Source: Acidobacteriota bacterium (GTDB lineage: Bacteria; Acidobacteriota; Thermoanaerobaculia; Multivoradales; JAGPDF01). Taken from it: 64,000 bases of DNA. Both the position numbers and the translations under genes were made by a program. This document shows, piece after piece, positions 8,982-26,386 of this stretch (the first letter of the stretch is position 1; every line of letters begins with the position of its first letter). The DNA lies in the NCBI GenBank assembly GCA_014584695.1, contig JACTMI010000036.1:62001-126000 (forward strand), in the 5' to 3' direction. The notes beneath the pieces are model-generated. The model was not told the DNA's origin. It was given only the letters and a program-made list of their open reading frames with translations, and did no database searches.

Positions 8982-10012
8982 GCACCCCGTCCGAGATCAC
9001 GCCGATCGTCACCGTCGTCGTTCCGGCGCGCGACGAAGGGACCCACCTGGGAGACTGCCTCGAGGCGATCGCGCGCCAGGACTATGCCGCCGAGCGGCTG
9101 GAGGTGCTCGTGGTGGTCGCCGCGGGCGACGCCGCGACGCGGTCGATCGCGGAGCGGTTCGCGGCGGCCGACGCGCGCTTCCGGGTGCTCGACAATCCGC
9201 ACGGCGGCACGGCGGCGGCGCTCAATGTCGGCGTGGCGGCGGCGCGGGGGGACTACCTCCTGCGGATCGACGCGCACTCGCTCCCCGCTCCGGATTACGC
9301 GAGCGTCTGCGTCGCCACGCTGCGCGCGACCGGAGCCGCCAACGTCGGCGGCCCGATGACGCCGGTCGGCGACACGACGGTCGGCCGGGCGGTCGCCTGC
9401 GCGATGAGCTCGCGCTTCGGCGTCGGCACCGCGCGCTTTCGCTTCGCCCGCCGGATCGAGGAGGTCGACACCGTCTACCTCGGCGCCTTTCCGCGCGCCT
9501 GGCTGGAGCGGGTCGGCCCCTTCGCGGAGGCGCTCGACCGCAACCAGGACTACGAGATGAACTTCCGGATTCGCCGCGCCGGCGGCCGGATCGTCGTCGA
9601 TCCTGCGGTTCGCGTCGTCTACAGGACGCGCCGCACGCTGGCCGAAGTGGCCTCGCAGTACGCGGGATACGGCTACTGGAAAGCGCAGATGCTGCGGCGA
9701 CACCCGCGCTCGCTGCGGCCGCGCCAGCTGGCGGCGCCGGCCCTGGTGGCGGGGCTGGCGCTGGCGCTGGTCGCGAGCGGGCTCGCGCTCGTCGCGCCAC
9801 GGCTGCCGCGCGAGCTGGCGTGGGGCTTTCCGCTGCTCGCCGGCCTCTACCTGGCGGCGAACCTCGCCGTCTCGACCGCCTTCGCGGCGCGGCGCGGCTG
9901 GCGCCTGTTGCCGGCGCTGCTCGCGGTCTTCCCGACGCTCCACTTCGCCTGGGGGGCCGGCTTTCTGGCCGGCTGGGTGGCGCCGCCGCGCTCCCGTGAG
10001 GCGACGTCGTGA
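8978..10012 (+). CDS. GT2 family glycosyltransferase, ExoA-like, membrane-anchored
   Basis: A 344-residue GT-A inverting glycosyltransferase, starting at GTG 8978 in a GTGA overlap. Residues ~10-230 form the catalytic domain: VVPARDEGTHLGDCLEAI, the nucleotide-binding loop before DNPHGGTAAALNVG, RIDAHS near 96 (the DAH form of the DxD motif seen in ExoA-type succinoglycan enzymes) and the acceptor motif NQDYEMNFRIR near 190. The C-terminal ~100 residues hold three or four hydrophobic segments (LAAPALVAGLALALVASGLA and two more) that would anchor it in the inner membrane. It sits in the middle of the glycan operon and probably extends the lipid-linked chain. Confidence 0.92.
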   Translation: MSTPSEITPIVTVVVPARDEGTHLGDCLEAIARQDYAAERLEVLVVVAAGDAATRSIAERFAAADARFRVLDNPHGGTAAALNVGVAAARGDYLLRIDAHSLPAPDYASVCVATLRATGAANVGGPMTPVGDTTVGRAVACAMSSRFGVGTARFRFARRIEEVDTVYLGAFPRAWLERVGPFAEALDRNQDYEMNFRIRRAGGRIVVDPAVRVVYRTRRTLAEVASQYAGYGYWKAQMLRRHPRSLRPRQLAAPALVAGLALALVASGLALVAPRLPRELAWGFPLLAGLYLAANLAVSTAFAARRGWRLLPALLAVFPTLHFAWGAGFLAGWVAPPRSREATS

Positions 10013-12726
10013 GAGAGCGGGCCGCCGCGCTCGCCGAGGCGGCGTGGTCGGTGGCGGCGCTGGTCGCTCTCCTGGTCGCGCCGCCGTTCGGCGCGCTCGG
10101 CCTCGAAAGCTCGCGCTGGCTGCTCTTGCGGCCGCTGGCCGCGATCGCCGTGGCGGCGGCGCTCGTCGCCCGGTGGGCGGCGAGGGAGCGCGCGGCGCGG
10201 GGCCGGCCTTCCGGTGTCGAGATCGCGGCCGGCTGCGTGGCCCTCGCGTTCGGTGTCGCGACGATTTTCTCGATCGATCCCGCGCGCAGTCTCCACGGCG
10301 CGCCGCCGCGGCTGGCGGGGCTCTTGTCGCTGCTCGCTCCGTTGGCGATTTTGGTAGTGGCGGCGCCGGCGCTGGCGCGGCCGGAGCGGCGAGAGCGGTT
10401 GGTGACGGTCCTGCTCGCGGGGGGTGGCGCGCTGGCCGCGTGGGCGCTCGCCGACGCGATCGGGCTGGAGCCGATGCCGTGGAGCGAGGACGGCGGCGAG
10501 CGGGTGCGCGGCGCACAGGGCAATCCGATCTTCCTGGGCGCGGCGCTCGCCATGGTCGCGCCGCTCGCCATCGCCCGCGCGGCGCGGCTCTGGAACGCCG
10601 GGGAGCGACGAGCGGTGCTGGCGCCGGGCGCGCTCGCGCTGCTGCTCGGCGCCGCGGCCCTGACCACGGGCGCGCGCGGGCCGCTGATCGGCCTCGCGGG
10701 CGGTTTGACGCTGGCGGCGGCGGCGACCGCCGTGCTCGCGGGCCGCCGCCGCTGGCTCTACGGGATCGCGCTCACCGCGCTCGTCGCCGGGGTCGCGGTG
10801 GCGCTCGCGGCGCCGGGTGACGGCGCCGCCGCGAAGCTCCGCCGCGTGCTCGACCCGGAAGCCGGCACGACCGCGCAGCGCCTGCGCCTCTGGCGGGGCA
10901 CGATCGCTCTGGTCGCGGCCGAGCCGGTCCGGTGGTGGACCGGCCAGGGGCCGGAGACGCTGGCCATCGCGCTGCCGGCGCACCTGCCGCTGGATCTGCC
11001 CGGGCTCTTCTTCCAGCCGGATCTCTTCCACGACCGCGCTCACAACGTCGTGCTCGACGATCTCGCCTCGGCCGGATTGCCGGGGGCCGCGACAGCCTGG
11101 GTTCTCGCGACGCTCGCGCTCGGCGCGACGCTCGCGGCCGCGGGTCTGGGGGAGAAGCGCCGCGAGGCGATCCGCCGCCACTTCCTGACCGCCGTGGGGA
11201 CCGCTCTGTCCTGCGCGCTGCTGGTGACGCTCTTCGATCGAATGGAGTGGCTGGGCGTCGCCTTCGGCGTCGCGCCCGTCGTCGCGGCCGCGATCCGCAT
11301 CGGTGCCGAATCGCGAGCGCGCGCGGCCGGGGCGTCGTGGCCGCTCGCGTCCTGGCTGCCGCTGGGGTTCCTGGCCAGCCTGGCCGCCAGCCAGATCGAG
11401 GGGCAAGTGGGGCTGCGGACGGCGGCGACGGCGACCCTCGGCGCGCTGCTGGCGGCGGCATTCGCGCGCGGCGTCGAGGTCGCGGCGCCGGCAGCGGGCA
11501 AGTCGAGAGAGCGGCGTGTCCGCACCGAGTCGCCACCGCCGGTGGGAGAGCCGGCGGCGGTCTGGGTGGCGCTGGTGGCGGCGACGGCGGCGCTTTCGAC
11601 CTGGACTCCCGCCGGTGCGCACGGCGCGCCGCGCGCGCTCGCGCTGGTCGCCGCCATCGCCGCCGCGGCGGCGCTGCCGGCGCCGCGGCCGCTCGCCGCT
11701 CTCCTCCGCGGACTGCTCGCCGCGGCGCCCTACCTGTTCGTGCACGGTCTGCTGGTCGCGTCGGGAGCCGGACCGCTGCCGCGGCTCGCGCTGTTCGGCG
11801 CCGGGCTGGTCGCCGCGCTGGCCTGGGCGGCGGTCGCGCTGACCCCGCCAGCGCGCGCGGCCGCGGCCACCGCCGCGCGCCGGCCTCTGGTGCTCGCGGT
11901 CGCGAGCCTCGCCGTGGCCCTGGTCGGCTGGAGCTCGGCCGAGCGCCTGGTGGCGGGCGTGGAGCTGGGCCGCGGCCGGGAGGAGCTGGCGGCCGGCCGG
12001 GCGGAGGCGGCGCGGCAGAGCTTCGCGGCCGCCTCCCGCCGGGCGCCGGAGCTCCAGGAGCCGGTGCTCTGGGGCGCCCGAGCGCTGGCGCGGATCGCCG
12101 CCGGCCAGAGTGCCGCCGACGAGCGGGACGCCACCTTCAGGCGGGCACTGGAGGAGCTCGACCGTCTGGCCAGCCGGCATCCCCGCGCCGCGGGGCCGCT
12201 CTTCGAAGCGGCGCTCGCCGCGGCCCAGTGGAGCGCGAGCTCGATCGATCCGGCCGCCGCCTCCGAGCGGCTCGGCTGGGCCCTCGAGCGCTTCGAGCGC
12301 GCCGGCGCGCGCGAGCCGACCAGCGCCCCGATCCTGCGCGCCTGGGGCGCGGCGCTCGCCGACGCCGGCCGGCTCGATCAGGCGATCTCCCGCCTGCGGC
12401 GCGCGACCGAGCTCGCCCCCCGCGCGCTCGAGGGGCACCTCCTGCTCGCCCGCGCCCTGCTCGCCGGCGGCGAGGTCGCCGCCGCAGGCGAGGCGGCGGC
12501 CGCGGCGCTCGCACTCGACCGGACGCGAGCGCTGCAGATCGTCGGCGGGTTGGCGCGCGCCCGTCCCGACGACGTCGATGCCCAGCTCGATGCCGCGCTC
12601 CTGCTCGCGACCGCCGGCGAGTCCGAGGCGGCGCTCGCGGCGGTGGCCGCGGCCCGCGCGATCGCCGGTCCTGGCGATCGCCCGCAGGTCGAGCGGGTCG
12701 CCGCGGCGCTCGCGGCGAACCGCTGA
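10009..12726 (+). CDS. O-antigen ligase/polymerase-type membrane protein with C-terminal TPRs
   Basis: A 905-residue Wzy_C-family protein (O-antigen ligase WaaL / polymerase Wzy superfamily). Such enzymes move a polyprenyl-linked glycan onto lipid A core or onto another repeat, at the periplasmic face. GTG 10009 overlaps the previous TGA. About twelve hydrophobic segments cover residues ~10-650. The large periplasmic loop has RLRLWRGTIALVAAEP, TGQGPETLAIA and DRAHNVVLDDLASAGLPG near 345, matching the conserved loop with its essential Arg and His. Residues ~650-905 are soluble and Ala-rich, with TPR-like helix pairs (LRAWGAALADAGRLDQAISRLRRATELAP), a common add-on in this family. With the ABC exporter downstream, ligation after export is the likelier role, but polymerisation is possible. 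Confidence 0.88.
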   Translation: MRERAAALAEAAWSVAALVALLVAPPFGALGLESSRWLLLRPLAAIAVAAALVARWAARERAARGRPSGVEIAAGCVALAFGVATIFSIDPARSLHGAPPRLAGLLSLLAPLAILVVAAPALARPERRERLVTVLLAGGGALAAWALADAIGLEPMPWSEDGGERVRGAQGNPIFLGAALAMVAPLAIARAARLWNAGERRAVLAPGALALLLGAAALTTGARGPLIGLAGGLTLAAAATAVLAGRRRWLYGIALTALVAGVAVALAAPGDGAAAKLRRVLDPEAGTTAQRLRLWRGTIALVAAEPVRWWTGQGPETLAIALPAHLPLDLPGLFFQPDLFHDRAHNVVLDDLASAGLPGAATAWVLATLALGATLAAAGLGEKRREAIRRHFLTAVGTALSCALLVTLFDRMEWLGVAFGVAPVVAAAIRIGAESRARAAGASWPLASWLPLGFLASLAASQIEGQVGLRTAATATLGALLAAAFARGVEVAAPAAGKSRERRVRTESPPPVGEPAAVWVALVAATAALSTWTPAGAHGAPRALALVAAIAAAAALPAPRPLAALLRGLLAAAPYLFVHGLLVASGAGPLPRLALFGAGLVAALAWAAVALTPPARAAAATAARRPLVLAVASLAVALVGWSSAERLVAGVELGRGREELAAGRAEAARQSFAAASRRAPELQEPVLWGARALARIAAGQSAADERDATFRRALEELDRLASRHPRAAGPLFEAALAAAQWSASSIDPAAASERLGWALERFERAGAREPTSAPILRAWGAALADAGRLDQAISRLRRATELAPRALEGHLLLARALLAGGEVAAAGEAAAAALALDRTRALQIVGGLARARPDDVDAQLDAALLLATAGESEAALAAVAAARAIAGPGDRPQVERVAAALAANR

Positions 12727-12733
12727 GGAGCCG

Positions 12734-13957
12734 ATGCGAATCGCCCTGCTCTCCTACGAGTATCCGCGGGAGACCGGTTTCGGCGGGATCGGCACCTACA
12801 CCTGGACCCAGGCCCGCGCGCTGGCGCGGCTTGGTCACGAGGTGCACGTCCTGGCGGGCTCGCGGGAAGGCCCGGCGCTGCGGCGGACGGAGGAGGGCGA
12901 GGTCACCGTCTGGCGGCGCGGTGTCGAGGGTCTCGCCGCGCGCGCGGGCCGCGGGCTCGGTCACGCCGGACTGCACTGGAGCCGCAACCGACTCGAGAAC
13001 GCCGCCGCGATGCGCGCAGGGTTGGCGGAGCTCGCGCGGCGGGTCGATTTCGACGTCGTCGAGATGCCCGAGTGCGGCGCCGAGGGACTGCTGCTGGGTG
13101 GGCCCGAGCGCCGCCGCCGCATCGTCCGACTGCACTCCCCGGCGGCCCTGATCCAAGGCTTCTACGACGTCCCGCGGCTCGACCGCTGGTTGTGCGCGCG
13201 GCTCGAGCGGCGGGCGGCGCGGCGGGCGGGCGGGTACTCCTCCTGCTCGGCCTTCCTGGCCGAGCAGGGAGCGCGGGTGCTGGGCATCGAGTCGCCGGTA
13301 CCGGTGTGGCCCAACGGCATCGATCTCGAGTCCGCCGACGCCGTCGAGCGTTTCGATCTCCGCCGCGAGCTCGGGCTGCGCTCGACCCGCCGGATCGTGC
13401 TCTTCGCCGGCCGGCTCGAACGGCGCAAGGGGGCCCATCTGCTGCCGGCGATCGCGCGCCGCGTGCTCGCACGCGACGACGTGGCGCTGGTCCTCGTCGG
13501 CGACGACCTGTTCGGAGCCCTCGGCCGCGAGCTCCTGCCGCGGTTCGAGGCCGACGGTGTCGCCGGCGCGGTGCACGCCCTGGGCCGACAGCCGGTCGAA
13601 CGGGTGCGCGGCGCGCTGCACCAGGCCGACGTCGCCCTGGTGCCCAGCCTGTGGGAGAGCTGCCCCTACGCCGTGCTCGAGGCGATGGCGGCGGCGGCGC
13701 CGATCGTGGCGGCGGCGGCTGGGGGGGTGCCGGAGCTGATCGGCGACGGTCGCGAGGGCCTGCTGGCGCCGGTGGGCGACGTCGAGGCGCTGTCCGGTGC
13801 GGTCCTGCGGCTCCTCGAAGACCGCTCCCTGGCCGAGCGGTTGGCGGCGGCGGCGCGCGCGCGCGCCGAGACGGAGCTCGACTCGACACGCGTCGCCGAG
13901 CGCGCGGCGCGCTTCTACGCCGGCGTCGCGGCCGGCGGGAGCGTCGGCCCGGAATGA
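12734..13957 (+). CDS. GT4 family glycosyltransferase (fourth)
   Basis: A 407-residue GT-B glycosyltransferase. ATG 12734 is eight bases after the ligase stop and has a GAGGAG site, one of the few operon junctions without overlap. The N terminus is a textbook GT4 acceptor loop: MRIALLSYEYPRETGFGGIGTY. The donor half shows VWPNGIDLES, LFAGRLERRKGAHLLPAI, VLVGDDLFG and the E-x7-E motif WESCPYAVLEAMA near 307. Its TGA overlaps the ATG of the next gene. The GFGGIGTY loop resembles enzymes of capsule and exopolysaccharide assembly, which fits the cluster; the sugar is unknown. Confidence 0.92.
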   Translation: MRIALLSYEYPRETGFGGIGTYTWTQARALARLGHEVHVLAGSREGPALRRTEEGEVTVWRRGVEGLAARAGRGLGHAGLHWSRNRLENAAAMRAGLAELARRVDFDVVEMPECGAEGLLLGGPERRRRIVRLHSPAALIQGFYDVPRLDRWLCARLERRAARRAGGYSSCSAFLAEQGARVLGIESPVPVWPNGIDLESADAVERFDLRRELGLRSTRRIVLFAGRLERRKGAHLLPAIARRVLARDDVALVLVGDDLFGALGRELLPRFEADGVAGAVHALGRQPVERVRGALHQADVALVPSLWESCPYAVLEAMAAAAPIVAAAAGGVPELIGDGREGLLAPVGDVEALSGAVLRLLEDRSLAERLAAAARARAETELDSTRVAERAARFYAGVAAGGSVGPE

Positions 13958-15402
13958 GCGCGTCGGCGCCGGCGCTGGGGCGCGTCCTGCGCCGCTGGGG
14001 GCGGCTGCTCGCTCGGCCGCTGCGCGCCGCTCGCGCCCTGCCCGCGAGGACACTGCGCCGGGCCCGGGCGGCCCGCGCGGCGGTGGCGCACGCGCGGGCG
14101 CAGCGGCGGCTCGAACGGAGCGCGGCGGGCACCGCGCCGCGAGCGCTCGGCATCGGCGACTGGACCTTCCCGCGCTACTCGCAGGCCTTCGTGTACCGCG
14201 AAGCCCTGGCGCTGGTCGACGGCGGGTTCGATTTGCGGTGGATCCACTCTCGCGCTGGCCGGCCGGACGAGCTCGCGCCGAGCCTGGCGCGGCTCGCGGC
14301 GCGCGGGGTCCTGCTCGAGCCGGATCCGGCGCTCGGGCGGCGCGAGCTCGAGCGCTATCGGCGGCTCTTCCCGGAGCGGGTGGCGAGCATCCTGGCGCGC
14401 CTCGTCGAGGCCTCCGGCCTGCCGGAAGATCTGCTCGTCGAGCGTGCGGACGTGGGGCGAGCCTTCGCCTTCGCCAGCCTCGCCGAGGCCTACCGCGCCG
14501 ACTACCTGCACAGCTGGTTCTTCTACGAAGGGGCGCTCGCGGCCTGGGTCGCGGCCGAGCTGCTCGACCTGCCACGGGGCCTGACCGCTTACGCCGATCA
14601 CCGGCTCGCCGACTATCCCCTGAAGGCCGTGGCGCTGCACCTGGCGAGCGCGGATCCGGTGGTGGCGACCTCGCGCCGGATCGGGATGGAGCTCACCGCG
14701 CTGGCGCCGTCGCTGGGCGGCCGCCTGCTGGTCAAGCCCAACACGGTCGACTGCGCGCTGTTCGCGGCGCCGCCACGACGAGCTCCCGCGGACGGTGAGC
14801 CGTTGCGGCTCGCCGCGGTGTCGCGGGTGGACCCCAAGAAGGGCCTGCCGGTGGCGGTCGAGGCGGTGGCGCGGCTGCGGGCTGGTGGCGTTTCGGTTCG
14901 CCTGGAGCACCTGGGCGGCGCTGACGAGGGGAGCCGGTCCGGTCGCGAGGAGCAGGAGCGGCTGTCGAGCCGGATTTCCGCGCTGGGGCTCGATGAGGCG
15001 ATCGTCCTGCGCGGCCGCGGCAGCGAGGACGAAGTGCGGCGGCTGCTGGCGGAGAGTCACCTGTTCCTGGCGCCGGCGGTCGAGACCGCGGAGGGCGACG
15101 TGGACGGCATCCCGACCTCTCTGCTGGAGGCGATGGCGAGCGGCCTGCCGATCGTCGCGACGACCGCCGGCTCGATTCCGGAAGCGATCGACGACGCCGT
15201 CGAAGGGCTCCTGGTAGCGCCGGGGGATGCCGCCGCGCTGGCCGGCGCGATCTCCCGGCTGGCCGCGGAGCCCGCGCTGGCCACCCGCCTGGGCGCGTCG
15301 GCGGCAGCGCGAGCCCGGCGCGAGTTCGACGCCGCGCGCCGAGAACCCGAGCTTACCGCGCGCGCACTCGAGCGGGTCCGGGCCGCGCGCGGCCTCTGCT
15401 AG
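13954..15402 (+). CDS. GT4 family glycosyltransferase (fifth, last gene of the glycan operon)
   Basis: A 482-residue GT-B glycosyltransferase, longer than its neighbours because of an Arg/Ala-rich N-terminal extension (~60 residues). The fold begins near 65 with IGDWTFPRYSQAFVYREALAL, the form seen in colanic-acid and exopolysaccharide transferases. The donor half contains LVKPNTVDCALF, SRVDPKKGLPVAVEAVARL and EGDVDGIPTSLLEAMA near 383, the D-G-(I/L)-P variant of the donor motif typical of that subgroup. ATG 13954 overlaps the previous TGA. The stop TAG at 15400-15402 overlaps a TAGCCT hexamer that may belong to the promoter of the P450 gene. Confidence 0.92.
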   Translation: MSASAPALGRVLRRWGRLLARPLRAARALPARTLRRARAARAAVAHARAQRRLERSAAGTAPRALGIGDWTFPRYSQAFVYREALALVDGGFDLRWIHSRAGRPDELAPSLARLAARGVLLEPDPALGRRELERYRRLFPERVASILARLVEASGLPEDLLVERADVGRAFAFASLAEAYRADYLHSWFFYEGALAAWVAAELLDLPRGLTAYADHRLADYPLKAVALHLASADPVVATSRRIGMELTALAPSLGGRLLVKPNTVDCALFAAPPRRAPADGEPLRLAAVSRVDPKKGLPVAVEAVARLRAGGVSVRLEHLGGADEGSRSGREEQERLSSRISALGLDEAIVLRGRGSEDEVRRLLAESHLFLAPAVETAEGDVDGIPTSLLEAMASGLPIVATTAGSIPEAIDDAVEGLLVAPGDAAALAGAISRLAAEPALATRLGASAAARARREFDAARREPELTARALERVRAARGLC

Positions 15403-18873: not shown

Positions 18874-19285
18874 GGACCATGATGCCGGCGACCGTGAGCG
18901 TCATGCCGATCGCCGTCCGCCACGACAGCGGCTCGCCGCCGAGCAGGATCGCCGTCAACGCCCCGAACAGCGGCGACGTGAAGGCGATCGGCAGCACCAG
19001 CGAGAGCGGCGCCGCCTTGAGCGCGGCGTAGAAGCAGAGGATGCCGAGCGCGCCCGCAGCGACGCCGCCGCCGAGCACGATCGAGAGCGCCGCGCCGGGG
19101 GGCGCCACCAGGATCTGACGCAGCTGCGGCCCGCTGGCGATGGCCAGCACCACCAGCGCCACGGCGGTGCGCAGCGTCGCGCCCACCGAGGGCGCGAAGC
19201 CGCCGGCGTGCAGTCCCTTCTTCTCGAAATAGCCGCCGATCCCCCAGGCGGCGGCGGTGACGATCGCCAGCAGCTCCGGCCTCAT
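18860..19285 (-). CDS. Small EamA/DMT-type membrane transporter
   Basis: A 141-residue hydrophobic protein with four or five membrane segments (LLAIVTAAAWGIGGYFEKKG at the start, MTLTVAGIMVLTTR at the end). The end motif FTSPLFGALTAILLGGEPLSWRTAIG, split over loop and helix, matches one half of an EamA drug/metabolite transporter. Full-length members have two such halves; single-half proteins usually act as dimers, like the ArnE/ArnF flippases that move modified polyprenyl-phosphates. That makes a lipid-carrier flippase role attractive here but unproven. ATG at 19285 overlaps the stop of the Wzt-like ATPase gene (ATGA), so it belongs to the exporter operon. Confidence 0.82.
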   Translation of the reverse strand: MRPELLAIVTAAAWGIGGYFEKKGLHAGGFAPSVGATLRTAVALVVLAIASGPQLRQILVAPPGAALSIVLGGGVAAGALGILCFYAALKAAPLSLVLPIAFTSPLFGALTAILLGGEPLSWRTAIGMTLTVAGIMVLTTR

Positions 19286-20583
19286 GTCGCTCCTCCGGGG
19301 CGCGCGGCCCCGACGTCGATGGCGGCGGCCGCGACGGGCCGACGCTCGGTTTCGATCTCGACCAGCGCGCGCGACAGGCGGATCAGTCGGGCCACTTCGT
19401 CGGCGGGCGAGCGCACCTCGACGAAGCGCGGCGTCTCCTGGTAGCCGTGGAGCGCGAGCACGGTGCGGCGGTAGGGATCGACGATGGCGCCGCGCAGGCC
19501 GTAGGTGCCGGCGAGCAGAGGCAGCTTCGGCACCCGCGCGCGCAGCTCCCCGCGGCCGGCCTCCAGCCGCGCGCCATCGCTCTCGAGCGCGCCGATGCCG
19601 GCGCCGATCTCGATCATCAGGTCGGCGCTGACCAGCTGGAAGAACCAGGGGACCTCCTCGATCGCGTCGCGAGCGTGATAGCGCAGCACCACCTCCGCCG
19701 GCTCGCCGCTGACCGGAGCGCGCCCATCGGCGCCGACCAGATCGATCGCCTCGATCACCACCGGCCGCTCCGCGCTCGGCTCCACGGTTCGCGCGGCGGT
19801 GGGATCGCTCCGCTCCCCCTCGCCCCGCTGGGCCTCGAGGTAGGCGGCGATCGCGTCGGAGGTCGCGCCCGCGAAGACCAGCCGCCCGCGGTCGAGATAG
19901 AGCGCGCGCGGGCAGAGAACCTGGAGCGAATAGAGGTCGTGCGAGACGATCGCCAGCGAGCGTCCGGATTCCGCGAGGCGGGCCATGTGGCGGAGGCACT
20001 TGCGGCGGAAGGCGGTGTCGCCGACGGCGAGGGCCTCGTCGATCAGCAGCACCTCCGGCTCGAGGTGGGCCGCCACCGCGAAGCCCAGCCGGGCGCGCAT
20101 GCCGGTGCTGTAGGTCGAGTAGGGTGCGTCGGCGAGCTCGCCCAGCCCCGAGAACTCGACGATCGAATCGAGCAGAGAGCGGTCGGCGGCGGCGCCGAGG
20201 TCCAGCAGCTGCGCGGCGTGACGTGCGTTGGCGCGGCCCGTCAGGCGCGGGTCGAAGCCCAGACCGAGGTCCGAGATGGCAGCCAGGCGGCCGCGCACCG
20301 TGACCCGGCCGGTGTCGGGGCGCATACGGCCGTGGATCAGCCGCAGCAAGGTGCTCTTGCCGGCGCCGTTGGGACCGAGGATCGCCAGGCACTCGCCCGC
20401 GGCGAGCTCGAAGGAGATCGAATCGAGCGCCCAGAACTCGGCCGGCCGGAGCGCCGCCGGGCGGGGCTGCCCGGCGAGCTCGCGCGCCAGGTCGGCGGCG
20501 GCGTAGAGCAGCGAGCGCCGGGGGTCACGGCAGAGCTTCTTGCCCAGCCCCTCGGCCTGGACCCGCGGCGCCTCCGCGCTCAC
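19282..20583 (-). CDS. Wzt-like ATP-binding protein of a polysaccharide ABC exporter
   Basis: A 433-residue ABC-2-type exporter ATPase of the Wzt/TagH/RfbE group. Walker A is GPNGAGKST near 70, the signature is YSTGMRARL (the Wzt form of the ABC signature) near 160, Walker B is VLLIDEALAVGD near 180 and the switch His is in VSHDLYS. Residues ~275-430 form an extra C-terminal domain (VLRYHARDAIEEVPWFFQL, LPLLAGTYGLRGAIVDP) like the Wzt carbohydrate-binding domain that checks the finished chain before export. GTG 20583 overlaps the SnoaL-like gene stop. Its membrane partner is the Wzm-like permease at 24485-25372, about 4 kb away on the same strand. Confidence 0.93.
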   Translation of the reverse strand: MSAEAPRVQAEGLGKKLCRDPRRSLLYAAADLARELAGQPRPAALRPAEFWALDSISFELAAGECLAILGPNGAGKSTLLRLIHGRMRPDTGRVTVRGRLAAISDLGLGFDPRLTGRANARHAAQLLDLGAAADRSLLDSIVEFSGLGELADAPYSTYSTGMRARLGFAVAAHLEPEVLLIDEALAVGDTAFRRKCLRHMARLAESGRSLAIVSHDLYSLQVLCPRALYLDRGRLVFAGATSDAIAAYLEAQRGEGERSDPTAARTVEPSAERPVVIEAIDLVGADGRAPVSGEPAEVVLRYHARDAIEEVPWFFQLVSADLMIEIGAGIGALESDGARLEAGRGELRARVPKLPLLAGTYGLRGAIVDPYRRTVLALHGYQETPRFVEVRSPADEVARLIRLSRALVEIETERRPVAAAAIDVGAARPGGAT

Positions 20584-21029
20584 GCCCGCCCCTCGAGCCA
20601 GCGCGCGCCGTGGACGGCGAGGCGCGAGATCCGCCAGGCGCCGTCGACCCTCTGGTAGTGCTCGCGGTACTCGGCGAGCAGCCGGCGTTCAGCGGGCGGC
20701 TCGGCGCGCGTGTCCTCGGCCAGCAGGAGCATCCACCAGCGGCCGGTGGCGCGATCGCCTTCGACTTCGAGGCGCGGGTTGGCGAGCAGGTGGGCGCCGC
20801 GCGCGAAGCGGCCGTCGAGCCGCGCGTAGAACGCGGCGATCTCGGCGTGGCCGCGAGCGCGGCCGCCGTCGGGCAGGAGCGCGAGCTCGGCGTCCTCGGT
20901 GAAGAGCGCGGCGATCTCGCTCCCCGCGGCGCCCCGATCGCACAGCTCACAGTAGTCGGCCTTCAACCGGCGCAGCGCCTCGAGGTCCTCCAGGCGGCGC
21001 AGGCGCGCGGCGAGCGCGGAGAGCTCCAT
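20580..21029 (-). CDS. SnoaL-like (NTF2-fold) protein
   Basis: A 149-residue protein of the SnoaL_4/NTF2-like fold. The pattern RRLEDLEALRRLKADYCELCD, a helix followed by ALFTEDAEL, GHAEIAAFY and a C-terminal DGAWRISRL strand, is typical. Members are cyclases, dehydratases, isomerases or simple binding proteins in secondary metabolism. The fold alone does not give a reaction. ATG 21029 lacks a Shine-Dalgarno but has TAGACT ten bases upstream. The stop overlaps the GTG of the Wzt gene, so exporter ATPase and SnoaL protein are made from one message, which ties it to the glycan or its lipid. Confidence 0.82.
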   Translation of the reverse strand: MELSALAARLRRLEDLEALRRLKADYCELCDRGAAGSEIAALFTEDAELALLPDGGRARGHAEIAAFYARLDGRFARGAHLLANPRLEVEGDRATGRWWMLLLAEDTRAEPPAERRLLAEYREHYQRVDGAWRISRLAVHGARWLEGRA

Positions 21030-21039
21030 GGGAGGAGGC

Positions 21040-21045
21040 AGTCTA
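21040..21045 (-). promoter_or_regulatory. -10-like TAGACT, ten bases before the SnoaL ATG
   Basis: The minus strand reads TAGACT, ten pyrimidine-rich bases, then ATG 21029. No Shine-Dalgarno. It heads the SnoaL-Wzt-DMT operon and faces a divergent TAGGCT box. Confidence 0.45.
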
Positions 21046-21074
21046 GCAAGCGGGTGAGAGGGGTGAAGGGGGTG

Positions 21075-21080
21075 TAGGCT
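21075..21080 (+). promoter_or_regulatory. -10-like TAGGCT, ten bases before the toroid gene ATG
   Basis: TAGGCT is followed by ten bases and ATG 21091. It is compatible with a leaderless or nearly leaderless transcript. No clear -35. Confidence 0.45.
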
Positions 21081-21090
21081 GCGGCGCGCG

Positions 21091-22122
21091 ATGGCGACGG
21101 GGCGTCGAGCGAGCCGTGGGCTGGACGAAGCGCTCGCGGCCGCGAGCGGGGCGCTGGCCGCCGAGCAACGAGCGGACGGTGAGATCCCGGTGACGATGCG
21201 ACGCCGGGGCGAGCCCGCCGAGGGGCGCCCCGACCGGACGCTCTTCGCGACCGCGCTCGCCGTGCCCTTTCTCGACTTCTTGGCGCCGCCGTCGGAGACG
21301 AGAATCGCGGCGGCGGCGCGCGGCTTCTTGAGGCGCGAGCGGGGGCGGCGCGACCTCGCCCGCTTCTGGCCGCGGACGCACCCGCGCGGCGCCTCGCTGC
21401 CGGCCGACCTGGATGACACCGCGGCGATGGCCCTGGCGCTCGGCGCGCTCCGGCCGGTCCGTCTGAGGCGACTGCTGCTCGCCCAGCGGGACGCGTGGGG
21501 GCGATTTCACACCTGGTTGCTGCCGCGTTCCCCGGGCGTGCTGGCGCGCCACCCGGAGCTCTCCGCGGCGGTGCCGCTGCTGGCGCGGCGCCACCCCTTC
21601 TGGACGCGCACCGAGGCGGCGCGCGACGATGTCGATGCCGGCGCCAACGCGCACGCGCTCGCCTGGCTCGGCGACTGCCCGGAGACGGCGTCGGCGGCGA
21701 GTTGGCTGGCCGAGCTCGCGGTCGCGGGCACGGAAGAGGAGGCCGATCGTTGGCATCGCCTCTGGGGGGTGCGCTGGCTGGTGGCGCGGGCGGCGGCGAC
21801 GGTCGCGTCGCTCGCGCCAGCGGCGGCGGCGCTCACCGATCGGATCGCGGTCGAAGCCGACGGCCTGGCGCGGGCGGGCGAGGCCGCGGACGTGGCGCTG
21901 GCCCTCGCCGCCGGCGTCGTCCTCGGCGTGCCCGCCGGCGCGCGCGCGCCGCTCGCCGAGCGCTTGCTGGCCGAGCAGAACGGCGAAGGTCGCTGGCCGC
22001 GGGCCGCGCTCTGGTACGGCGGCGCCCGTCGGACGGTCGAATGGGGCTCGGCGGCCCTGACCACGGCCCTCGCCGCCGGCGCTCTCGCCGCCGAGCGGCA
22101 GCGGCGGGCGCTGAGCGACTAG
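21091..22122 (+). CDS. Short alpha/alpha-toroid protein with DLDDTA motif (terpenoid-cyclase-like fold)
   Basis: A 343-residue, helix-rich protein resembling prenyltransferase/squalene-cyclase repeat proteins. SLPADLDDTAAMALAL near 105-120 contains D-L-D-D-T-A, the same pattern as the catalytic DxDDTA of class II diterpene cyclases. A second QNGEGRWPRAALWYGG near 295 looks like a QW-type repeat end. At 343 residues it is much shorter than class II cyclases (about 500 or more), and no clear second beta-domain is visible, so cyclase activity is not established. The UbiA gene lies 1.3 kb away. Its stop shares the tetranucleotide CTAG with the stop of the convergent GT-A gene. Confidence 0.65.
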   Translation: MATGRRASRGLDEALAAASGALAAEQRADGEIPVTMRRRGEPAEGRPDRTLFATALAVPFLDFLAPPSETRIAAAARGFLRRERGRRDLARFWPRTHPRGASLPADLDDTAAMALALGALRPVRLRRLLLAQRDAWGRFHTWLLPRSPGVLARHPELSAAVPLLARRHPFWTRTEAARDDVDAGANAHALAWLGDCPETASAASWLAELAVAGTEEEADRWHRLWGVRWLVARAAATVASLAPAAAALTDRIAVEADGLARAGEAADVALALAAGVVLGVPAGARAPLAERLLAEQNGEGRWPRAALWYGGARRTVEWGSAALTTALAAGALAAERQRRALSD

Positions 22123-23432
22123 CGTGCGAGGTCGCGGCCGAGCGGCCAGGAGAGATCGCCGAGGCCGCCGCCGATCAGGTGGAGGAGCTGCGCCCCCTCG
22201 GCCTCGAGATCCCGCAGCCGGACGCTCGCCCCGGCGCGCGAGCGGCGATCGACGATGCGGTTGAAGGCCGCGGGCAGCCGCGGGTGGCGGTCGAGGCCGT
22301 GCGCCCAGGCGGTGGCGACGAGCGCGGCCTGGTCGCGCACGGCGAATCCGGGCGTCGCGAACAGCTCTTCGCAGCGCCGCCGCCAGTCGGCGAGCAGCGG
22401 TCGCGCGCCGGGGCCGAAGAGGAAGACGCCGCCGTTCCAGGGGACCCAGGTGCGATCGGCGATCGAGATGGCGAAGCGGCGCTCGAGCGCCTCGGCCAGG
22501 TGATCGCAGACCCCGAGCTCGTCCCCTGCGCCGTCGACCCAGGCGCCGCCCGCGTCGCGCTCCGAATCGTTCCGCCAGCGGCGCCGCGGCCGGTCGTCGC
22601 GATACCACCAGAGCACCCCGTCGCCGGAGTCCGCGATGCGCCGCAGAGAGTCGCCGTCGGCGTCGCGCCAGAAGCCCCCGCCGACGCAGCTCCGGTCTTC
22701 GATCCACGCCAACGCAGGGCCCTCGCCGTCTTCGAAGCGCGCGCCGCCCTCCTCCTCGATCCGCAGGAAGCGGCCGTTGCGGAAATGGTGGACGAGACGC
22801 ACCGGCTGGCCGGCGCGGAAGGTCTGTTCGAAGCGGACCGAGCCGTCGGCCGCGGCGCCCGTGGCGGTGCCGTTCCACCAGGCGCCGCGGCGCCGCTCGC
22901 CTTCGAAGCGGGGGTTGCGGTAGAGCTCCGGATCGCCGAGCGCGGCGAGCTCGCGGTGCTCGCGGTGCAGAGCCGTCAGCCGCTCGAGCCGCCGGCAGAA
23001 GCGCTCGAGGCGTGAGCGTTCCCGCGCGCACTCACAGGCGAAGCCGTGGCCACCGAAGGTGCGCAGGGTCGCTTCCGGAACCGGCAGATCGGAGGCGAAG
23101 GTGAGCGGCGGTTGGAAGTGCTCGAAGATCCGGTCCACCTCGCCGCCGATGGCGACCACGTCGCTGTCGAGGTAGCAGTGGACGGCGTCGCCGGGAAGGT
23201 GCTCCGCGAGCGCGGACTTGAGCAGGATCGCGGCCTGGGCGTCGCTCCAGCGCGGATCGGTCGGGATGGCGAGGACCTCGACACCATCGAGGGTGGCCCG
23301 ATTGCGCGCCGGGTCGGTGGCGACCAGGATCGGCCGCGCGGTGAAGCGCCGCAGCCGGGCGGCCGCCTCGCCGGCGCGTGCCAGGTGCTCGCGCCCGCCG
23401 CAGACGGCGAAGACGAAGCTGCCGGGCTTCAT
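22119..23432 (-). CDS. GT-A-fold glycosyltransferase with an inserted domain
   Basis: A 437-residue protein that reads as a nucleotide-sugar transferase of GT-A type interrupted by an insert. The N-terminal part has VFAVCGGREHLARAGEAA and CYLDSDVVAIGG near 88 (DxD motif). The C-terminal part has VPWNGGVFLFG, RDQAALVATAWAHGL and RLPAAFN, as in GT8-like enzymes. Between them, residues ~175-300 form a Trp/Gly/Arg-rich insert with MORN-like strands (RLVHHFRNGRFLRIEEEGG, VLWWYRDDRPRR). ATG 23432 overlaps the UbiA stop (ATGA), so it is coupled to UbiA and the Wzm permease. It probably adds a sugar to the polyprenyl or glycan product; the insert is unexplained. Confidence 0.7.
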   Translation of the reverse strand: MKPGSFVFAVCGGREHLARAGEAAARLRRFTARPILVATDPARNRATLDGVEVLAIPTDPRWSDAQAAILLKSALAEHLPGDAVHCYLDSDVVAIGGEVDRIFEHFQPPLTFASDLPVPEATLRTFGGHGFACECARERSRLERFCRRLERLTALHREHRELAALGDPELYRNPRFEGERRRGAWWNGTATGAAADGSVRFEQTFRAGQPVRLVHHFRNGRFLRIEEEGGARFEDGEGPALAWIEDRSCVGGGFWRDADGDSLRRIADSGDGVLWWYRDDRPRRRWRNDSERDAGGAWVDGAGDELGVCDHLAEALERRFAISIADRTWVPWNGGVFLFGPGARPLLADWRRRCEELFATPGFAVRDQAALVATAWAHGLDRHPRLPAAFNRIVDRRSRAGASVRLRDLEAEGAQLLHLIGGGLGDLSWPLGRDLAR

Positions 23433-24481
23433 TCGAACCGCCTCGCACGCGCCGCGACGAGATCGGACAGCGCGGTGCGGAAGAGCGCCAGGTGGAGCAG
23501 CGCGATGACGAAGTAGCGCCAGTCCGCGACCGCCAGCGCCGCGAGCGCGCCGAGCGGCAGCCAGCGCTCGTGGAAGTCGTTGAGCAGCGCGTAGCCCGGG
23601 TAGCCGCGGCGGTAGAAACCCCGGCCGCGCCGCCACCGCACGTGGATCTTCCAGAGGGTCAGGGCCAGGAACAGGGCCCAGGCCGGCAGCAGCCAGGGCG
23701 CGCGCGGTCCGAGCGCCGCGCCGGCGGCGGCGAAGGCGGCGAGCTGCAGGGGGAAGAGGAGGCGGAGCAGCAGCCGCCGCGAGGCGAGCGGCCCCCAGGC
23801 CAGGACGAAGGTGCGCGTGCCGGAGCGGCGGTCCGCGCGGCGGTCGGCGAGCTGGCTCGCGAGCGCGCCGCAGAGACCTTGGAGCAGCTTCCAGACGAGC
23901 AGCGCGGCGAGCGTCGCGAGCTCGATCGTCTCGCGGCCGCCGGCGGCGGCGAAGATCGCGGCGGCGACGCCGACGGGCAGCGCGTGGCCGTAGAGCGCGT
24001 CGGCCACGACCCCCGCGACGCCGCGCTCCTTGAGGCGGAGCGGCGGCATCGAGTAGGCGAGGAAGAGCAGCAGCTCGGCGCCGTAGAGCGCGAGCGCGAT
24101 CGGCTCGCGCGGCAGGCCGAGCCAGGGCAGCAAGGACAGGGCGAGCGCGGCGGCGACCACCCCGGCGCGGCCGGAGTTGGAGAGTCGCGCCAGGGCGCTG
24201 GGCCGGCCGGCGCGAGCGTCGGACTCGAGGTCGCTCCAATCGTTGACCAGGTGGCCGAAGGCGGCGGTGCCGAGCGCGGTGGCGAGGAACAGCAGCAGCG
24301 TGACGCCGCCCGCGAGCGGCGCCGCCGGCTCCGGCGCGGCGAGCAGCAGGTAGCCGATCGCGAGCAGCGGCGGCAGCTTGTAGTCCCACCAGTCCGGCGC
24401 CCGGACCAGCGTGCCCAGAGCCCGCCCGGGCGCGTCCCCGGCGGCCGCGGCTTCGCTCGCTCCTGGCGGCGCGGCCGGCAT
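23429..24481 (-). CDS. UbiA-family prenyltransferase
   Basis: A 350-residue integral membrane prenyltransferase with about nine hydrophobic segments. The first Asp-rich motif NDWSDLESD near 87 fits NDxxDxxxD. The second is in QLADRRADRRSGTRT near 210, where Mg-diphosphate is held. UbiA enzymes attach a polyprenyl group to aromatics, to heme (CyoE), to chlorins or, in DPPR synthase, to phosphoribose. Beside a GT, a Wzm permease and, further off, Wzt, the DPPR-synthase context in actinobacteria is the closest parallel, but the partner epimerase and phosphatase genes are not here. ATG 24481 follows the Wzm stop by three bases. Confidence 0.87.
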   Translation of the reverse strand: MPAAPPGASEAAAAGDAPGRALGTLVRAPDWWDYKLPPLLAIGYLLLAAPEPAAPLAGGVTLLLFLATALGTAAFGHLVNDWSDLESDARAGRPSALARLSNSGRAGVVAAALALSLLPWLGLPREPIALALYGAELLLFLAYSMPPLRLKERGVAGVVADALYGHALPVGVAAAIFAAAGGRETIELATLAALLVWKLLQGLCGALASQLADRRADRRSGTRTFVLAWGPLASRRLLLRLLFPLQLAAFAAAGAALGPRAPWLLPAWALFLALTLWKIHVRWRRGRGFYRRGYPGYALLNDFHERWLPLGALAALAVADWRYFVIALLHLALFRTALSDLVAARARRFE

Positions 24482-24484
24482 CGG

Positions 24485-25372
24485 CTAGACCCCGGTGCGT
24501 TCGAGAACGTAGGGGAGCGCCAGCCGGTAGAAGAGCCAGCCGGTGGGCAGCAGAACGAGGACCAGCCCGACGGAGGCGCTGGCGCCGACCGGGTGCGAGA
24601 CCAGGCCCGCGACCGAGAGATCGCGCGCGAAGCCGAGCAGCGGGGTCACCGGGTTGGTCAGCACCAGCAGCCGGAAGGCCCCTTCGACGGGGACCGGGAA
24701 GATCACCGGGGTCAGGAAGAAGCCGGCGGTGGTGACCGCCGGAAGTGTCCGCGCCAGATCCGGCCAGAGCGAGGCCAGGGGCGCCAGCCAGAGGCCGCAG
24801 GCGGTGCCGAGCAGGACCAGGGGCAGCGCGAGCAGCGGTAGCCAGGCGACGGTCGGCGGCAGGTCGACCCGGAACAGCAGCGCCAGCGCGACGCCGAGCG
24901 CCACCTTGAGCAGCAGCTGGAAGAGCGTCTCGGCCAGACGGGTGAGCTGGATCGACTCCGGTGGCAGGTCGAGCTTGGCGAGCAGGTGGCGGTCCGCCGC
25001 GAGGCCATCGACCTGGTGATGGAGCGCCTCGGCGAAGGCCTGCCAGAGGGTCACCGAGAGGAAGACCCAGGCCGGGTAGGGGAGCGCCAAGTCACCGACG
25101 GTGAGCACGCGCGCGCGGTGGGCCAGGGTCGCCCAGAGCGTGACGACCAGCGCCGGCACGAAGGCCGAGGGGAGGCCGAACAACGAGGAGAGGTAGCGGG
25201 AGCGGAAGTCCCGGACGAAGCGGCCGCGAGCGAGCGAAATCGCGCGGCGCAAGTCGCGGCCGCCGCCGGCCAGCTCGCGCAGGTGGTCGCGCAGCCGCCG
25301 CTCCGAGGCGCGGACGACCGGCCGCGCCGGCTCGCCGACTCGTCGCCCGCTCGCCATGCCCGGCCCGCTCAC
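24485..25372 (-). CDS. Wzm-like ABC-2 permease of the polysaccharide exporter
   Basis: A 295-residue ABC-2 membrane protein. After a ~45-residue basic cytoplasmic start comes LARGRFVRDFRSRYLSSLFG, the amphipathic coupling helix typical of Wzm/TagG permeases, then six membrane segments, with FFLTPVIFPVP and LTNPVTPLLGFARD near 215-245 matching the conserved family region. It should form the channel with the Wzt-like ATPase encoded at 19282-20583. Start GTG 25372 is six bases from the isomerase stop; an ATG at 25357 is an alternative. Gene order isomerase-Wzm-UbiA-GT suggests one operon for export and lipid-carrier steps. Confidence 0.9.
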   Translation of the reverse strand: MSGPGMASGRRVGEPARPVVRASERRLRDHLRELAGGGRDLRRAISLARGRFVRDFRSRYLSSLFGLPSAFVPALVVTLWATLAHRARVLTVGDLALPYPAWVFLSVTLWQAFAEALHHQVDGLAADRHLLAKLDLPPESIQLTRLAETLFQLLLKVALGVALALLFRVDLPPTVAWLPLLALPLVLLGTACGLWLAPLASLWPDLARTLPAVTTAGFFLTPVIFPVPVEGAFRLLVLTNPVTPLLGFARDLSVAGLVSHPVGASASVGLVLVLLPTGWLFYRLALPYVLERTGV

Positions 25373-25378
25373 CGCGGC

Positions 25379-26386
25379 TCAGCCGCCGGGCAGCGGCGGC
25401 GGCGCGAGCGCCGGCCGCTCCGTCGGCGCGAGCGGCGCGATGGCGCCGAGACGGGCTTCGTCGACCGCCACCGGATGGCTGGCGAGCACCCGTTCGTAGA
25501 AACGCGCGCGGGCCTCTTCGTTGCGCTGTTTCATCAGGCGCGCGCGGATGCCGCTGCGGACTCGCTCGAGGGGCGTCGGGCGAGCCTCCTCGCGTTCGAC
25601 CAGCTTGAGGAAGTAGAAGCCCGCCTCGCCGCGCGTCAGCGGAGAGATCGCGCCGGGGGCCGGCAGCTCGAAGGCCTGTCGCACCAGCTCGGGGCCCCAG
25701 CGGTAGCGGTCGGCCTGTGCCTCGTAGAGCCAGCCGAGCTCGCCGCCGGTGTAGCGGGTGGCGGCGTCGTCCGAGTACTGCTGCGCCACCGGACCGAGCG
25801 CGCGTTCGCCGGTGGGCAATTTCTCCGCCGCCGCGCGCGCTTCGGCGGCGCGGTCGGCCAGGCGCGCGACCTCCTCTTCGCTCGCTTTCGGGCTGACCGC
25901 CACCAGCACCCAGGCGGCGCGGAGGCGGGCCGGCTGCAGGAACTCCTCCTGGCGGCTCCGGTAGAAGCTCTCGACCTCGGCGTCGGTCACCGGCGCGGCC
26001 TCGAGCCGGTCCTCGAGCTGGTCGCGCAGGAAGCGGCGCGCCAGCATCTTCTCGACCGTGGCGACGAATTCGGGGTCGCGGTCGTAGCCGGCGGCGCGGG
26101 CCGCCAGCGAGAGCGCCCGCTCCCGCACCATCTCGTCGAGCAGCGCGCGCCGCTGCTCGGGCGTCGCGTAGCTGCCGGGCACCGAGCCTCCCCGGTTGGC
26201 CATCTCGCGGCGGAACTCCTCGACCGTGATGCGGGTCTCGCCGACCGTGGCGAGGACCTCCTCCCCGCCCGGCGAGCCCGCGGTCTCCTGCGGACTCGGC
26301 GCCGCGGCGGCGGGCTGCAGGCTCAGGATCAACAGCGCCGCGACGGCGGTCAGCCCGGCGGCGCTCGGTGGTGGCATGCGAATCAC
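25379..26386 (-). CDS. Exported parvulin-type peptidyl-prolyl isomerase (SurA/PrsA-like)
   Basis: A 335-residue periplasmic folding factor. A signal peptide covers residues ~1-28 (LTAVAALLILSLQPAAA). Residues ~42-170 form the SurA_N-like chaperone region (ATVGETRITVEEFRREM; DEMVRERALSLAARAAGYDRDPEF). A parvulin domain follows at ~150-265, with the weak but recognisable core GGELGWLYEAQADRY and YFLKLVEREEARPTPLERV. The start is taken as GTG 26386 with GGGAGGAG upstream; ATG 26377 is possible. It lies first in the operon with the Wzm permease and may help fold the outer-membrane part of the export system or act generally. Confidence 0.85.
   Translation of the reverse strand: MIRMPPPSAAGLTAVAALLILSLQPAAAAPSPQETAGSPGGEEVLATVGETRITVEEFRREMANRGGSVPGSYATPEQRRALLDEMVRERALSLAARAAGYDRDPEFVATVEKMLARRFLRDQLEDRLEAAPVTDAEVESFYRSRQEEFLQPARLRAAWVLVAVSPKASEEEVARLADRAAEARAAAEKLPTGERALGPVAQQYSDDAATRYTGGELGWLYEAQADRYRWGPELVRQAFELPAPGAISPLTRGEAGFYFLKLVEREEARPTPLERVRSGIRARLMKQRNEEARARFYERVLASHPVAVDEARLGAIAPLAPTERPALAPPPLPGG

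What the first reader, a model, noticed from the sequence alone, without database searches (positions are those of the whole stretch)
20580..25372. DLDDTA toroid protein beside UbiA, a GT and a split Wzm/Wzt exporter
A 343-residue alpha/alpha-toroid protein has SLPADLDDTA, the pattern of the class II terpene cyclase DxDDTA acid motif. It sits between the SnoaL-Wzt-DMT operon and the GT-UbiA-Wzm-isomerase operon. P450, methyltransferase and B12-type radical SAM genes are within 6 kb. Together they could make and export an unusual prenyl-linked or cyclised-lipid glycan carrier. DPPR synthase (a UbiA enzyme) lies near Wzm/Wzt genes in mycobacteria, so a prenyl-phosphate-sugar role is a grounded alternative.
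Basis: partly seen in the sequence, partly recalled or inferred. Interest (0 to 1): 0.65.

Follow-up and report, generated by a model that had tools for sequence, protein, structure and literature searches.

The report
Stand-alone terpene cyclase in glycan-export locus
A soil-type bacterium carries an unannotated enzyme that almost certainly curls up terpene chains, placed inside a gene set for making and exporting a sugar polymer next to an enzyme that attaches such chains; relatives of the pair recur in many bacteria, which points to an uncharacterised class of terpene-modified glycolipids or meroterpenoids.

Summary
The toroid protein g16 (21091-22122 +, 343 aa) is real. It matches no family model in Pfam or NCBIfam, but it is a class II (proton-initiated) terpene cyclase domain. 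A 24-member family profile hits drimenol synthase AsDMS (E 2.6e-28), AstC, squalene-hopene cyclase and MstE. The AlphaFold model (pLDDT 91.9) superposes best on AsDMS with bound FPP (Z 31.8, 2.4 A over 291 residues), well above toroid glycosidases and epimerases (Z about 18). Both catalytic Asp (D106, D108) are invariant in 35 homologues. Unlike drimenol synthases it has no HAD phosphatase domain and lacks the diphosphate-binding residues.

Cyclase and UbiA genes are adjacent in 17 loci, in several separate cyclase clades, with glycosyltransferases fused to one or the other. The UbiA g18 is not DPPR synthase: the host has a true one elsewhere.

Five relatives of the same order carry the UbiA-GT-Wzm(-Wzt) glycan locus without the cyclase. 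In the same-genus one, Wzt follows the GT directly and the cyclase, SnoaL, EamA, B12 radical SAM, methyltransferase and P450 are all missing. The cyclase is therefore an accessory graft.

Class II cyclase: about 0.9. Acting on the UbiA product: about 0.6. Cyclised-prenyl glycan anchor or cap: about 0.3. New variant of a known kind.

The parts
21091..22122 (+). g16, stand-alone class II terpene cyclase domain (TC-beta type); DxDDT at residues 106-110
23429..24481 (-). g18, UbiA-superfamily prenyltransferase with both Asp motifs (NDWSDLESD; DRRADRRSG); not DPPR, heme O or MqnP type
22119..23432 (-). g17, probable glycosyltransferase (invariant YLDSDV); no library match
24485..25372 (-). g19, Wzm-type ABC-2 permease (start 25357 or 25372)
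19282..20583 (-). g14, Wzt-type ATPase; weak Wzt_C carbohydrate-binding match below cut-off
20580..21029 (-). g15, SnoaL-like protein; absent from the same-genus locus L112
18860..19285 (-). g13, half-length EamA/DMT protein, 4 predicted TM; absent from L112
17491..18873 (+). g12, B12-binding radical SAM protein; absent from L112
16688..17392 (-). g11, SAM methyltransferase; 41% identical to one beside the cyclase in L046; absent from L112
15426..16721 (+). g10, cytochrome P450; absent from L112
5651..15402 (+). g03-g09, glycosyltransferases and a Wzy_C/O-antigen-ligase-type protein (g07); core glycan genes
25379..26386 (-). g20, PpiC/SurA-like peptidyl-prolyl isomerase; conserved flank of the core locus

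Best explanation
g16 is a single-domain class II terpene cyclase. D108 protonates the terminal double bond of a prenyl chain and D106 acts as its partner, as D333/D331 do in AsDMS and D273/D271 in AstC. It has lost, or never had, the HAD phosphatase domain and the diphosphate-binding residues of those enzymes. The likely substrate is therefore a prenyl chain joined to something else, most plausibly the product of the neighbouring UbiA prenyltransferase g18, as MstE cyclises a prenylated aromatic acid. P450, methyltransferase, B12 radical SAM and SnoaL proteins would tailor the ring system, glycosyltransferases would glycosylate it, and the Wzm/Wzt pair would export it. Shown here: the fold, family, conserved catalytic Asp, the conserved cyclase-UbiA pairing, and that the cyclase cassette was added to a pre-existing UbiA/GT/Wzm glycan locus. 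Inferred: the order of steps, the prenyl acceptor, and export of the product by Wzm/Wzt.
For: Family profile hits AsDMS 2.6e-28, AstC 1.4e-16, SHC 2.8e-12 and MstE 4.9e-6, with the DxD motifs aligned. Model pLDDT 91.9, pTM 0.92; best match AsDMS+FPP Z 31.8, then MstE 27.6 and SHC 26.6, against GH76 and epimerases near 18. D106 and D108 are invariant in 35 of 35; pocket aromatics F281, F318 and F518 map to F52, F92 and W318. Y373 is W/F in 24 of 24 and R378 is not conserved; Y373A and R378A abolish or nearly abolish AsDMS activity (PMC12365925). Cyclase and UbiA are adjacent in 17 loci, gaps -114 to 1609 bp, including 7 of 7 membrane-protein-fused cyclases with long flanks. GT4-UbiA fusion in L044 and GT4-cyclase fusion in its relative L065. 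In Patescibacteria-type genomes the cyclase sits among mevalonate-pathway genes with polyprenyl synthetase and geranylgeranyl reductase. L046 repeats Wzm, Wzt, P450, methyltransferase, UbiA and cyclase. The same-genus locus L112 lacks all six accessory genes.
Against: No activity data. In g16 the residues matching the acid-positioning Tyr427 and Asn388 of AsDMS are H222 and H188. His at 188 is common in the fused clade, but His at 222 is rare (2 of 35), so activity or specificity may differ. Many homologues have no UbiA nearby (RiPP-type loci, Cupriavidus, Corallococcus), so UbiA is not an obligate partner. UbiA g18 exists without the cyclase in five relatives. g16 is on the opposite strand to UbiA and in its own transcription unit.
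Confidence: 0.7

Rival explanations
1. g16 is a class II terpene cyclase that works on a free prenyl diphosphate or prenol and makes a small terpenoid (drimane- or labdane-like). The neighbouring UbiA and glycan exporter belong to a separate pathway and the adjacency in this window is incidental.
For: Relatives carry the UbiA/GT/Wzm locus without the cyclase. The P450, methyltransferase and radical SAM genes absent with it would suit a small terpenoid. AsDMS and AstC use FPP. In mevalonate-type operons the cyclase lies next to polyprenyl synthetase.
Against: Cyclase-UbiA adjacency recurs in 17 loci and needs at least three changes on the cyclase tree. GT4-UbiA and GT4-cyclase fusions exist. 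Key diphosphate-binding residues are not conserved.
Confidence: 0.2
2. UbiA g18 is a polyprenyl-phosphate sugar (DPPR-like) synthase of a three-component glycan-decorating system, and the toroid is a carbohydrate-active or structural accessory.
For: Three-component systems with a DPPR-type UbiA enzyme, a flippase and a GT-C enzyme decorate ABC-exported glycans (PMC11127046). A small EamA protein (g13) could be a flippase. Some cyclase homologues are fused to multi-TM proteins beside UbiA.
Against: g18 has no DPPR model match at E<=1, and the host's own DPPR synthase scores 289 bits elsewhere. The toroid's sequence and fold matches are to terpene cyclases, far above carbohydrate enzymes.
Confidence: 0.05
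3. g16 is a decaying or repurposed cyclase (Tyr427 and Asn388 positions both His) that no longer catalyses class II cyclisation, for instance a binding protein.
For: H222 is rare in the family and the branch is long. No close relative was found in the same genus or family.
Against: Intact ORF with coding-type codon usage, both catalytic Asp kept, His at 188 also present in seven other members, confident active-cyclase-like model.
Confidence: 0.08

Closest known systems
Drimenol synthase AsDMS and fungal AstC (HAD-TC-beta terpene cyclases; PMC12365925, PMC13244436)
   Same: Same toroid domain, closest in profile and fold; DxD catalytic pair and pocket aromatics conserved.
   Different: No HAD phosphatase domain; diphosphate-binding Tyr373/Arg378 absent; acid-positioning Tyr/Asn are His/His in g16; genomic partners are UbiA and glycan genes.
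MstE, merosterolic acid synthase (monodomain class II cyclase; described in PMC9401909)
   Same: Single-domain class II cyclase of about 350 aa; cyclises a prenyl chain already joined to an acceptor (GG-DHB), as proposed for the g18 product.
   Different: About 16% identity in structural alignment; that pathway makes an aromatic meroterpenoid, with no reported glycan export link that I found.
Squalene-hopene cyclase
   Same: DxDDTA acid motif and toroid fold; a His near the acid in SHC (from memory) resembles g16's His residues.
   Different: SHC has two toroid domains and about 630 aa; g16 is one domain and scores lower against it than against AsDMS.
Wzm/Wzt ABC-dependent glycan export loci
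   Same: ABC-2 permease, Wzt-type ATPase, many glycosyltransferases and a Wzy_C protein.
   Different: A non-housekeeping UbiA is a standing member in six genomes of the order, and the window adds a terpene-tailoring cassette between GT and Wzt.

Membership tests
[quoted passage not shown]
   AsDMS Z 31.8 over 291 residues, MstE 27.6
[quoted passage not shown]
   D106/D108 align to D331/D333, 35 of 35
Class II terpene cyclase, AsDMS/AstC subtype | Tyr427/Asn388-type residues positioning the acid | tested here: not met
   H222 and H188 in g16; Tyr in 18/24 and Asn in 22/24 of the family
[quoted passage not shown]
   needs enzyme assay
HAD-TC drimenol synthase | N-terminal HAD phosphatase domain | tested here: not met
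   whole 343-aa protein is the cyclase domain, no HAD match
HAD-TC drimenol synthase | diphosphate-binding Tyr373 and Arg378 | tested here: not met
   W142 and S147; not conserved in the family
UbiA prenyltransferase superfamily | Pfam PF01040 over cut-off and both Asp-rich motifs | tested here: met
   61.9 bits against 34.2; invariant NDxxDxxxD and DRxxDR
DPPR synthase | match to decaprenyl-phosphate phosphoribosyltransferase models | tested here: not met
   none for g18 at E<=1; positive control L069 289 bits (cut-off 234)
Menaquinone / heme O UbiA enzymes | match over the curated cut-offs | tested here: not met
   g18 no match over cut-off; host heme O enzyme (L067, over cut-off) and MqnP/4-hydroxybenzoate-like enzyme (L066, over the ubiA_other cut-off) are separate genes
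Wzt with carbohydrate-binding domain | Wzt_C domain over cut-off | tested here: inconclusive
   14.4 bits against 30.4
Three-component pentofuranose system | DPPR-type UbiA, flippase and GT-C enzyme together | tested here: not met
   the UbiA is not DPPR type; flippase and GT-C roles in the window were not tested

The most novel reading that the evidence does not exclude
Bacteria modify an ABC-exported glycan or glycolipid with a polycyclic terpene: UbiA joins a prenyl chain to the glycan's lipid or cap, a stand-alone class II cyclase folds it, tailoring enzymes oxidise and methylate it, and Wzm/Wzt export the terpene-bearing glycan to the cell surface.
Probability: 0.3. Interest if true: 0.85.

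Novelty: new variant of a known kind. Interest (0 to 1): 0.66.

Why it matters
A broad family of class II terpene cyclases lies unnamed by Pfam and NCBIfam in Acidobacteriota, Pseudomonadota, Myxococcota, Chloroflexota, Patescibacteria and others. It fits the stand-alone TC-beta enzyme that the AsDMS authors proposed as a forerunner of HAD-fused drimenol synthases. Its repeated pairing with UbiA and glycosyltransferases, with an exporter in some loci, predicts an unexplored class of terpene-bearing glycolipids or meroterpenoids. It also gives culturable hosts, such as Terriglobus albidus, in which to look for them.

Tried and rejected
DPPR synthase role for g18: rejected by family models with a positive control. 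Toroid as glycosidase, epimerase or lyase: fold scores far lower and no sequence match. Single-sequence PDB search gave only a meaningless hit; the family profile was needed. A viral-contig scan found no relative. The first genome-contig query failed because the alignment was too divergent. Structure of g17 without an alignment was useless (pLDDT 38.5), and PDB and Pfam searches gave no GT family. UbiA solved-structure matches were too weak to name a substrate. The multi-TM part of the fused cyclases has no GT family match, so 'GT-C' for it is unproven. Literature searches found no report of this cyclase-UbiA-exporter combination, but most subscription papers are not held. Loci L038 and L039 and parts of L113 and L114 were badly called by my gene finder; L113 and L114 were redone by tblastn.

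Full report
Setting. The window is contig 10 of a 4.35-Mb, 48-contig assembly. A same-order genome (G028) has a contig of the same length (142,873 bases) as a record titled Thermoanaerobaculia bacterium and carries the same cyclase ORF, so the host is most likely in Thermoanaerobaculia, Acidobacteriota.

Observation. The 343-aa ORF at 21091-22122 + with SLPADLDDTA is real, reads as coding by codon position GC, and holds the only PxDxDD[TS]A string in six frames. It ends tail-to-tail with the probable GT g17 (4-base overlap) and starts 61 bases from the divergent SnoaL gene. The isomerase is a PpiC/SurA-type peptidyl-prolyl isomerase.

What g16 is. It has no Pfam or NCBIfam match. Homologues came from whole-genome searches and a scan of 84,980 species genomes (25 loci from Acidobacteriota, Pseudomonadota, Myxococcota, Chloroflexota, Thermomicrobiota, Fermentibacterota, Omnitrophota, Patescibacteria and Clostridia). 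A profile of 24 of the proteins finds the cyclase domain of drimenol synthase AsDMS at 2.6e-28, AstC at 1.4e-16, squalene-hopene cyclase at 2.8e-12 and MstE at 4.9e-6, with PDLDDTA aligned to DDLDTT and GSEELTTA-EAL to GSRELSTA-EAL. AlphaFold gives pLDDT 91.9 and pTM 0.92. The best fold match is AsDMS with bound FPP, Z 31.8, rmsd 2.4 over 291 residues; MstE 27.6, SHC 26.6; toroid carbohydrate enzymes near 18. This is a class II terpene cyclase domain.

Active site. Published AsDMS numbering was recovered exactly (all residues checked agree). D331 and D333 map to D106 and D108, invariant in 24 of 24 and then 35 of 35 sequences. The third Asp varies (V, S, T), which fits AstC and AsDMS, where D-x-D-T suffices (PMC13244436, PMC12365925). 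Pocket aromatics are kept. The diphosphate-binding Y373 is Trp or Phe in all 24 and R378 is not conserved, so a diphosphate head is not obviously recognised. The acid-positioning Tyr427 and Asn388 are His in g16 (H222, H188). His at 188 occurs in seven other sequences, six of them membrane-protein-fused; His at 222 is rare.

Partners. UbiA genes lie next to the cyclase in 17 loci (gaps -114 to 1609 bp): the window, L041 (Terriglobus albidus), L042, L043, L044, L045, L046, L092, L064, L065 and seven loci where the cyclase is fused to a multi-TM protein. L041 and L042 are near copies. The host has 5 UbiA genes in 4.35 Mb, so chance adjacency is under about 1% per locus by my estimate. The label needs at least three changes on the cyclase tree, so the pairing is not one inherited event. 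L044 has a GT4 glycosyltransferase fused to UbiA; its relative in L065 has the same GT fused to a cyclase-type toroid, with separate UbiA, Wzm and Wzt. L046 has Wzm, an acyltransferase-P450 fusion, Wzt, cyclase, methyltransferase, sulfotransferase and UbiA. In three Patescibacteria-type loci the cyclase lies among mevalonate-pathway-type genes (named by eye), next to polyprenyl synthetase and, in two, geranylgeranyl reductase; the synthetase and reductase were confirmed by Pfam in representatives.

The UbiA g18. PF01040 over cut-off, both Asp motifs invariant. It groups with other cyclase-linked UbiAs (83/91, moderate support; long branches) away from the host's MqnP-like, heme O, ChlG-like and DPPR enzymes. 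The DPPR idea fails: no DPPR match at E<=1, with a 289-bit positive control in the same genome.

History of the locus. In a same-genus genome (L112) the order is g24-g20, Wzm, UbiA, GT, Wzt (10 bp after the GT), then g09-g04. P450, methyltransferase, B12 radical SAM, EamA, SnoaL and cyclase are all missing. Four more genomes of the order have UbiA and the GT, three of them with Wzm and one also with Wzt, but no cyclase (the short contig L113 lacks a Wzm match). So the UbiA/GT/Wzm core is most simply the older state, and the terpene cassette was added in this lineage, separating Wzm from Wzt; loss from the others is less simple but not excluded.

Mechanism. Best supported: D108 protonates the end of a prenyl chain, D106 assists, the chain cyclises in the toroid cavity, and tailoring follows. 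That the chain sits on the UbiA product is inferred from the conserved pairing, the fusions, the missing diphosphate site and the MstE precedent (PMC9401909). That the final product is glycosylated and exported is inferred from the locus. The acceptor is unknown.

Known versus new. The fold, motif and single-domain cyclisation are known (AsDMS, AstC, MstE). New here: a large HAD-less family unnamed in Pfam and NCBIfam, its repeated link to UbiA and glycosyltransferases, and its graft onto an ABC-export glycan locus. The AsDMS authors proposed a stand-alone TC-beta ancestor (PMC12365925); this family fits that role, though the tree does not place AsDMS firmly.

Noticed in passing
L032:9457-10764 (-), L095-L097 and L099, L051:2315-2569, L033:301-594: Cyclase homologues occur in RiPP-type loci: fused to an NHLP leader-like domain beside YcaO/SagD and NHLP exporters, or next to stand-alone NHLP leader peptides.
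   Followed up: partly
L053:164-1255, L054:7899-8936, L059:7872-8939: Homologues in Omnitrophota and Fermentibacterota start with signal-like segments, suggesting exported class II cyclase-type proteins.
   Followed up: no
L034, L035, L036, L037, L100, L101, L102: Cyclase domains fused to multi-TM membrane proteins (9-12 predicted TM in the three checked), without a known glycosyltransferase family match in those scanned, each with UbiA immediately adjacent.
   Followed up: partly
L060, L063, L064: Patescibacteria-type genomes carry the cyclase inside a mevalonate-pathway operon; in L064 the polyprenyl synthetase contains an intein.
   Followed up: partly
L046:979-2529, L049:8981-10977, L047:2-7642: A PKS-type acyltransferase domain with a P450, or a whole PKS with a P450-related protein, sits beside the cyclase in an acidobacterium, Cupriavidus and a proteobacterial MAG.
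   Followed up: no
L029:11768-13642 (-): A second, squalene-cyclase-like toroid protein lies near a cyclase homologue.
   Followed up: no
window 5651-15402: The glycosyltransferase/Wzy_C array upstream is part of the conserved core glycan locus of the order.
   Followed up: yes
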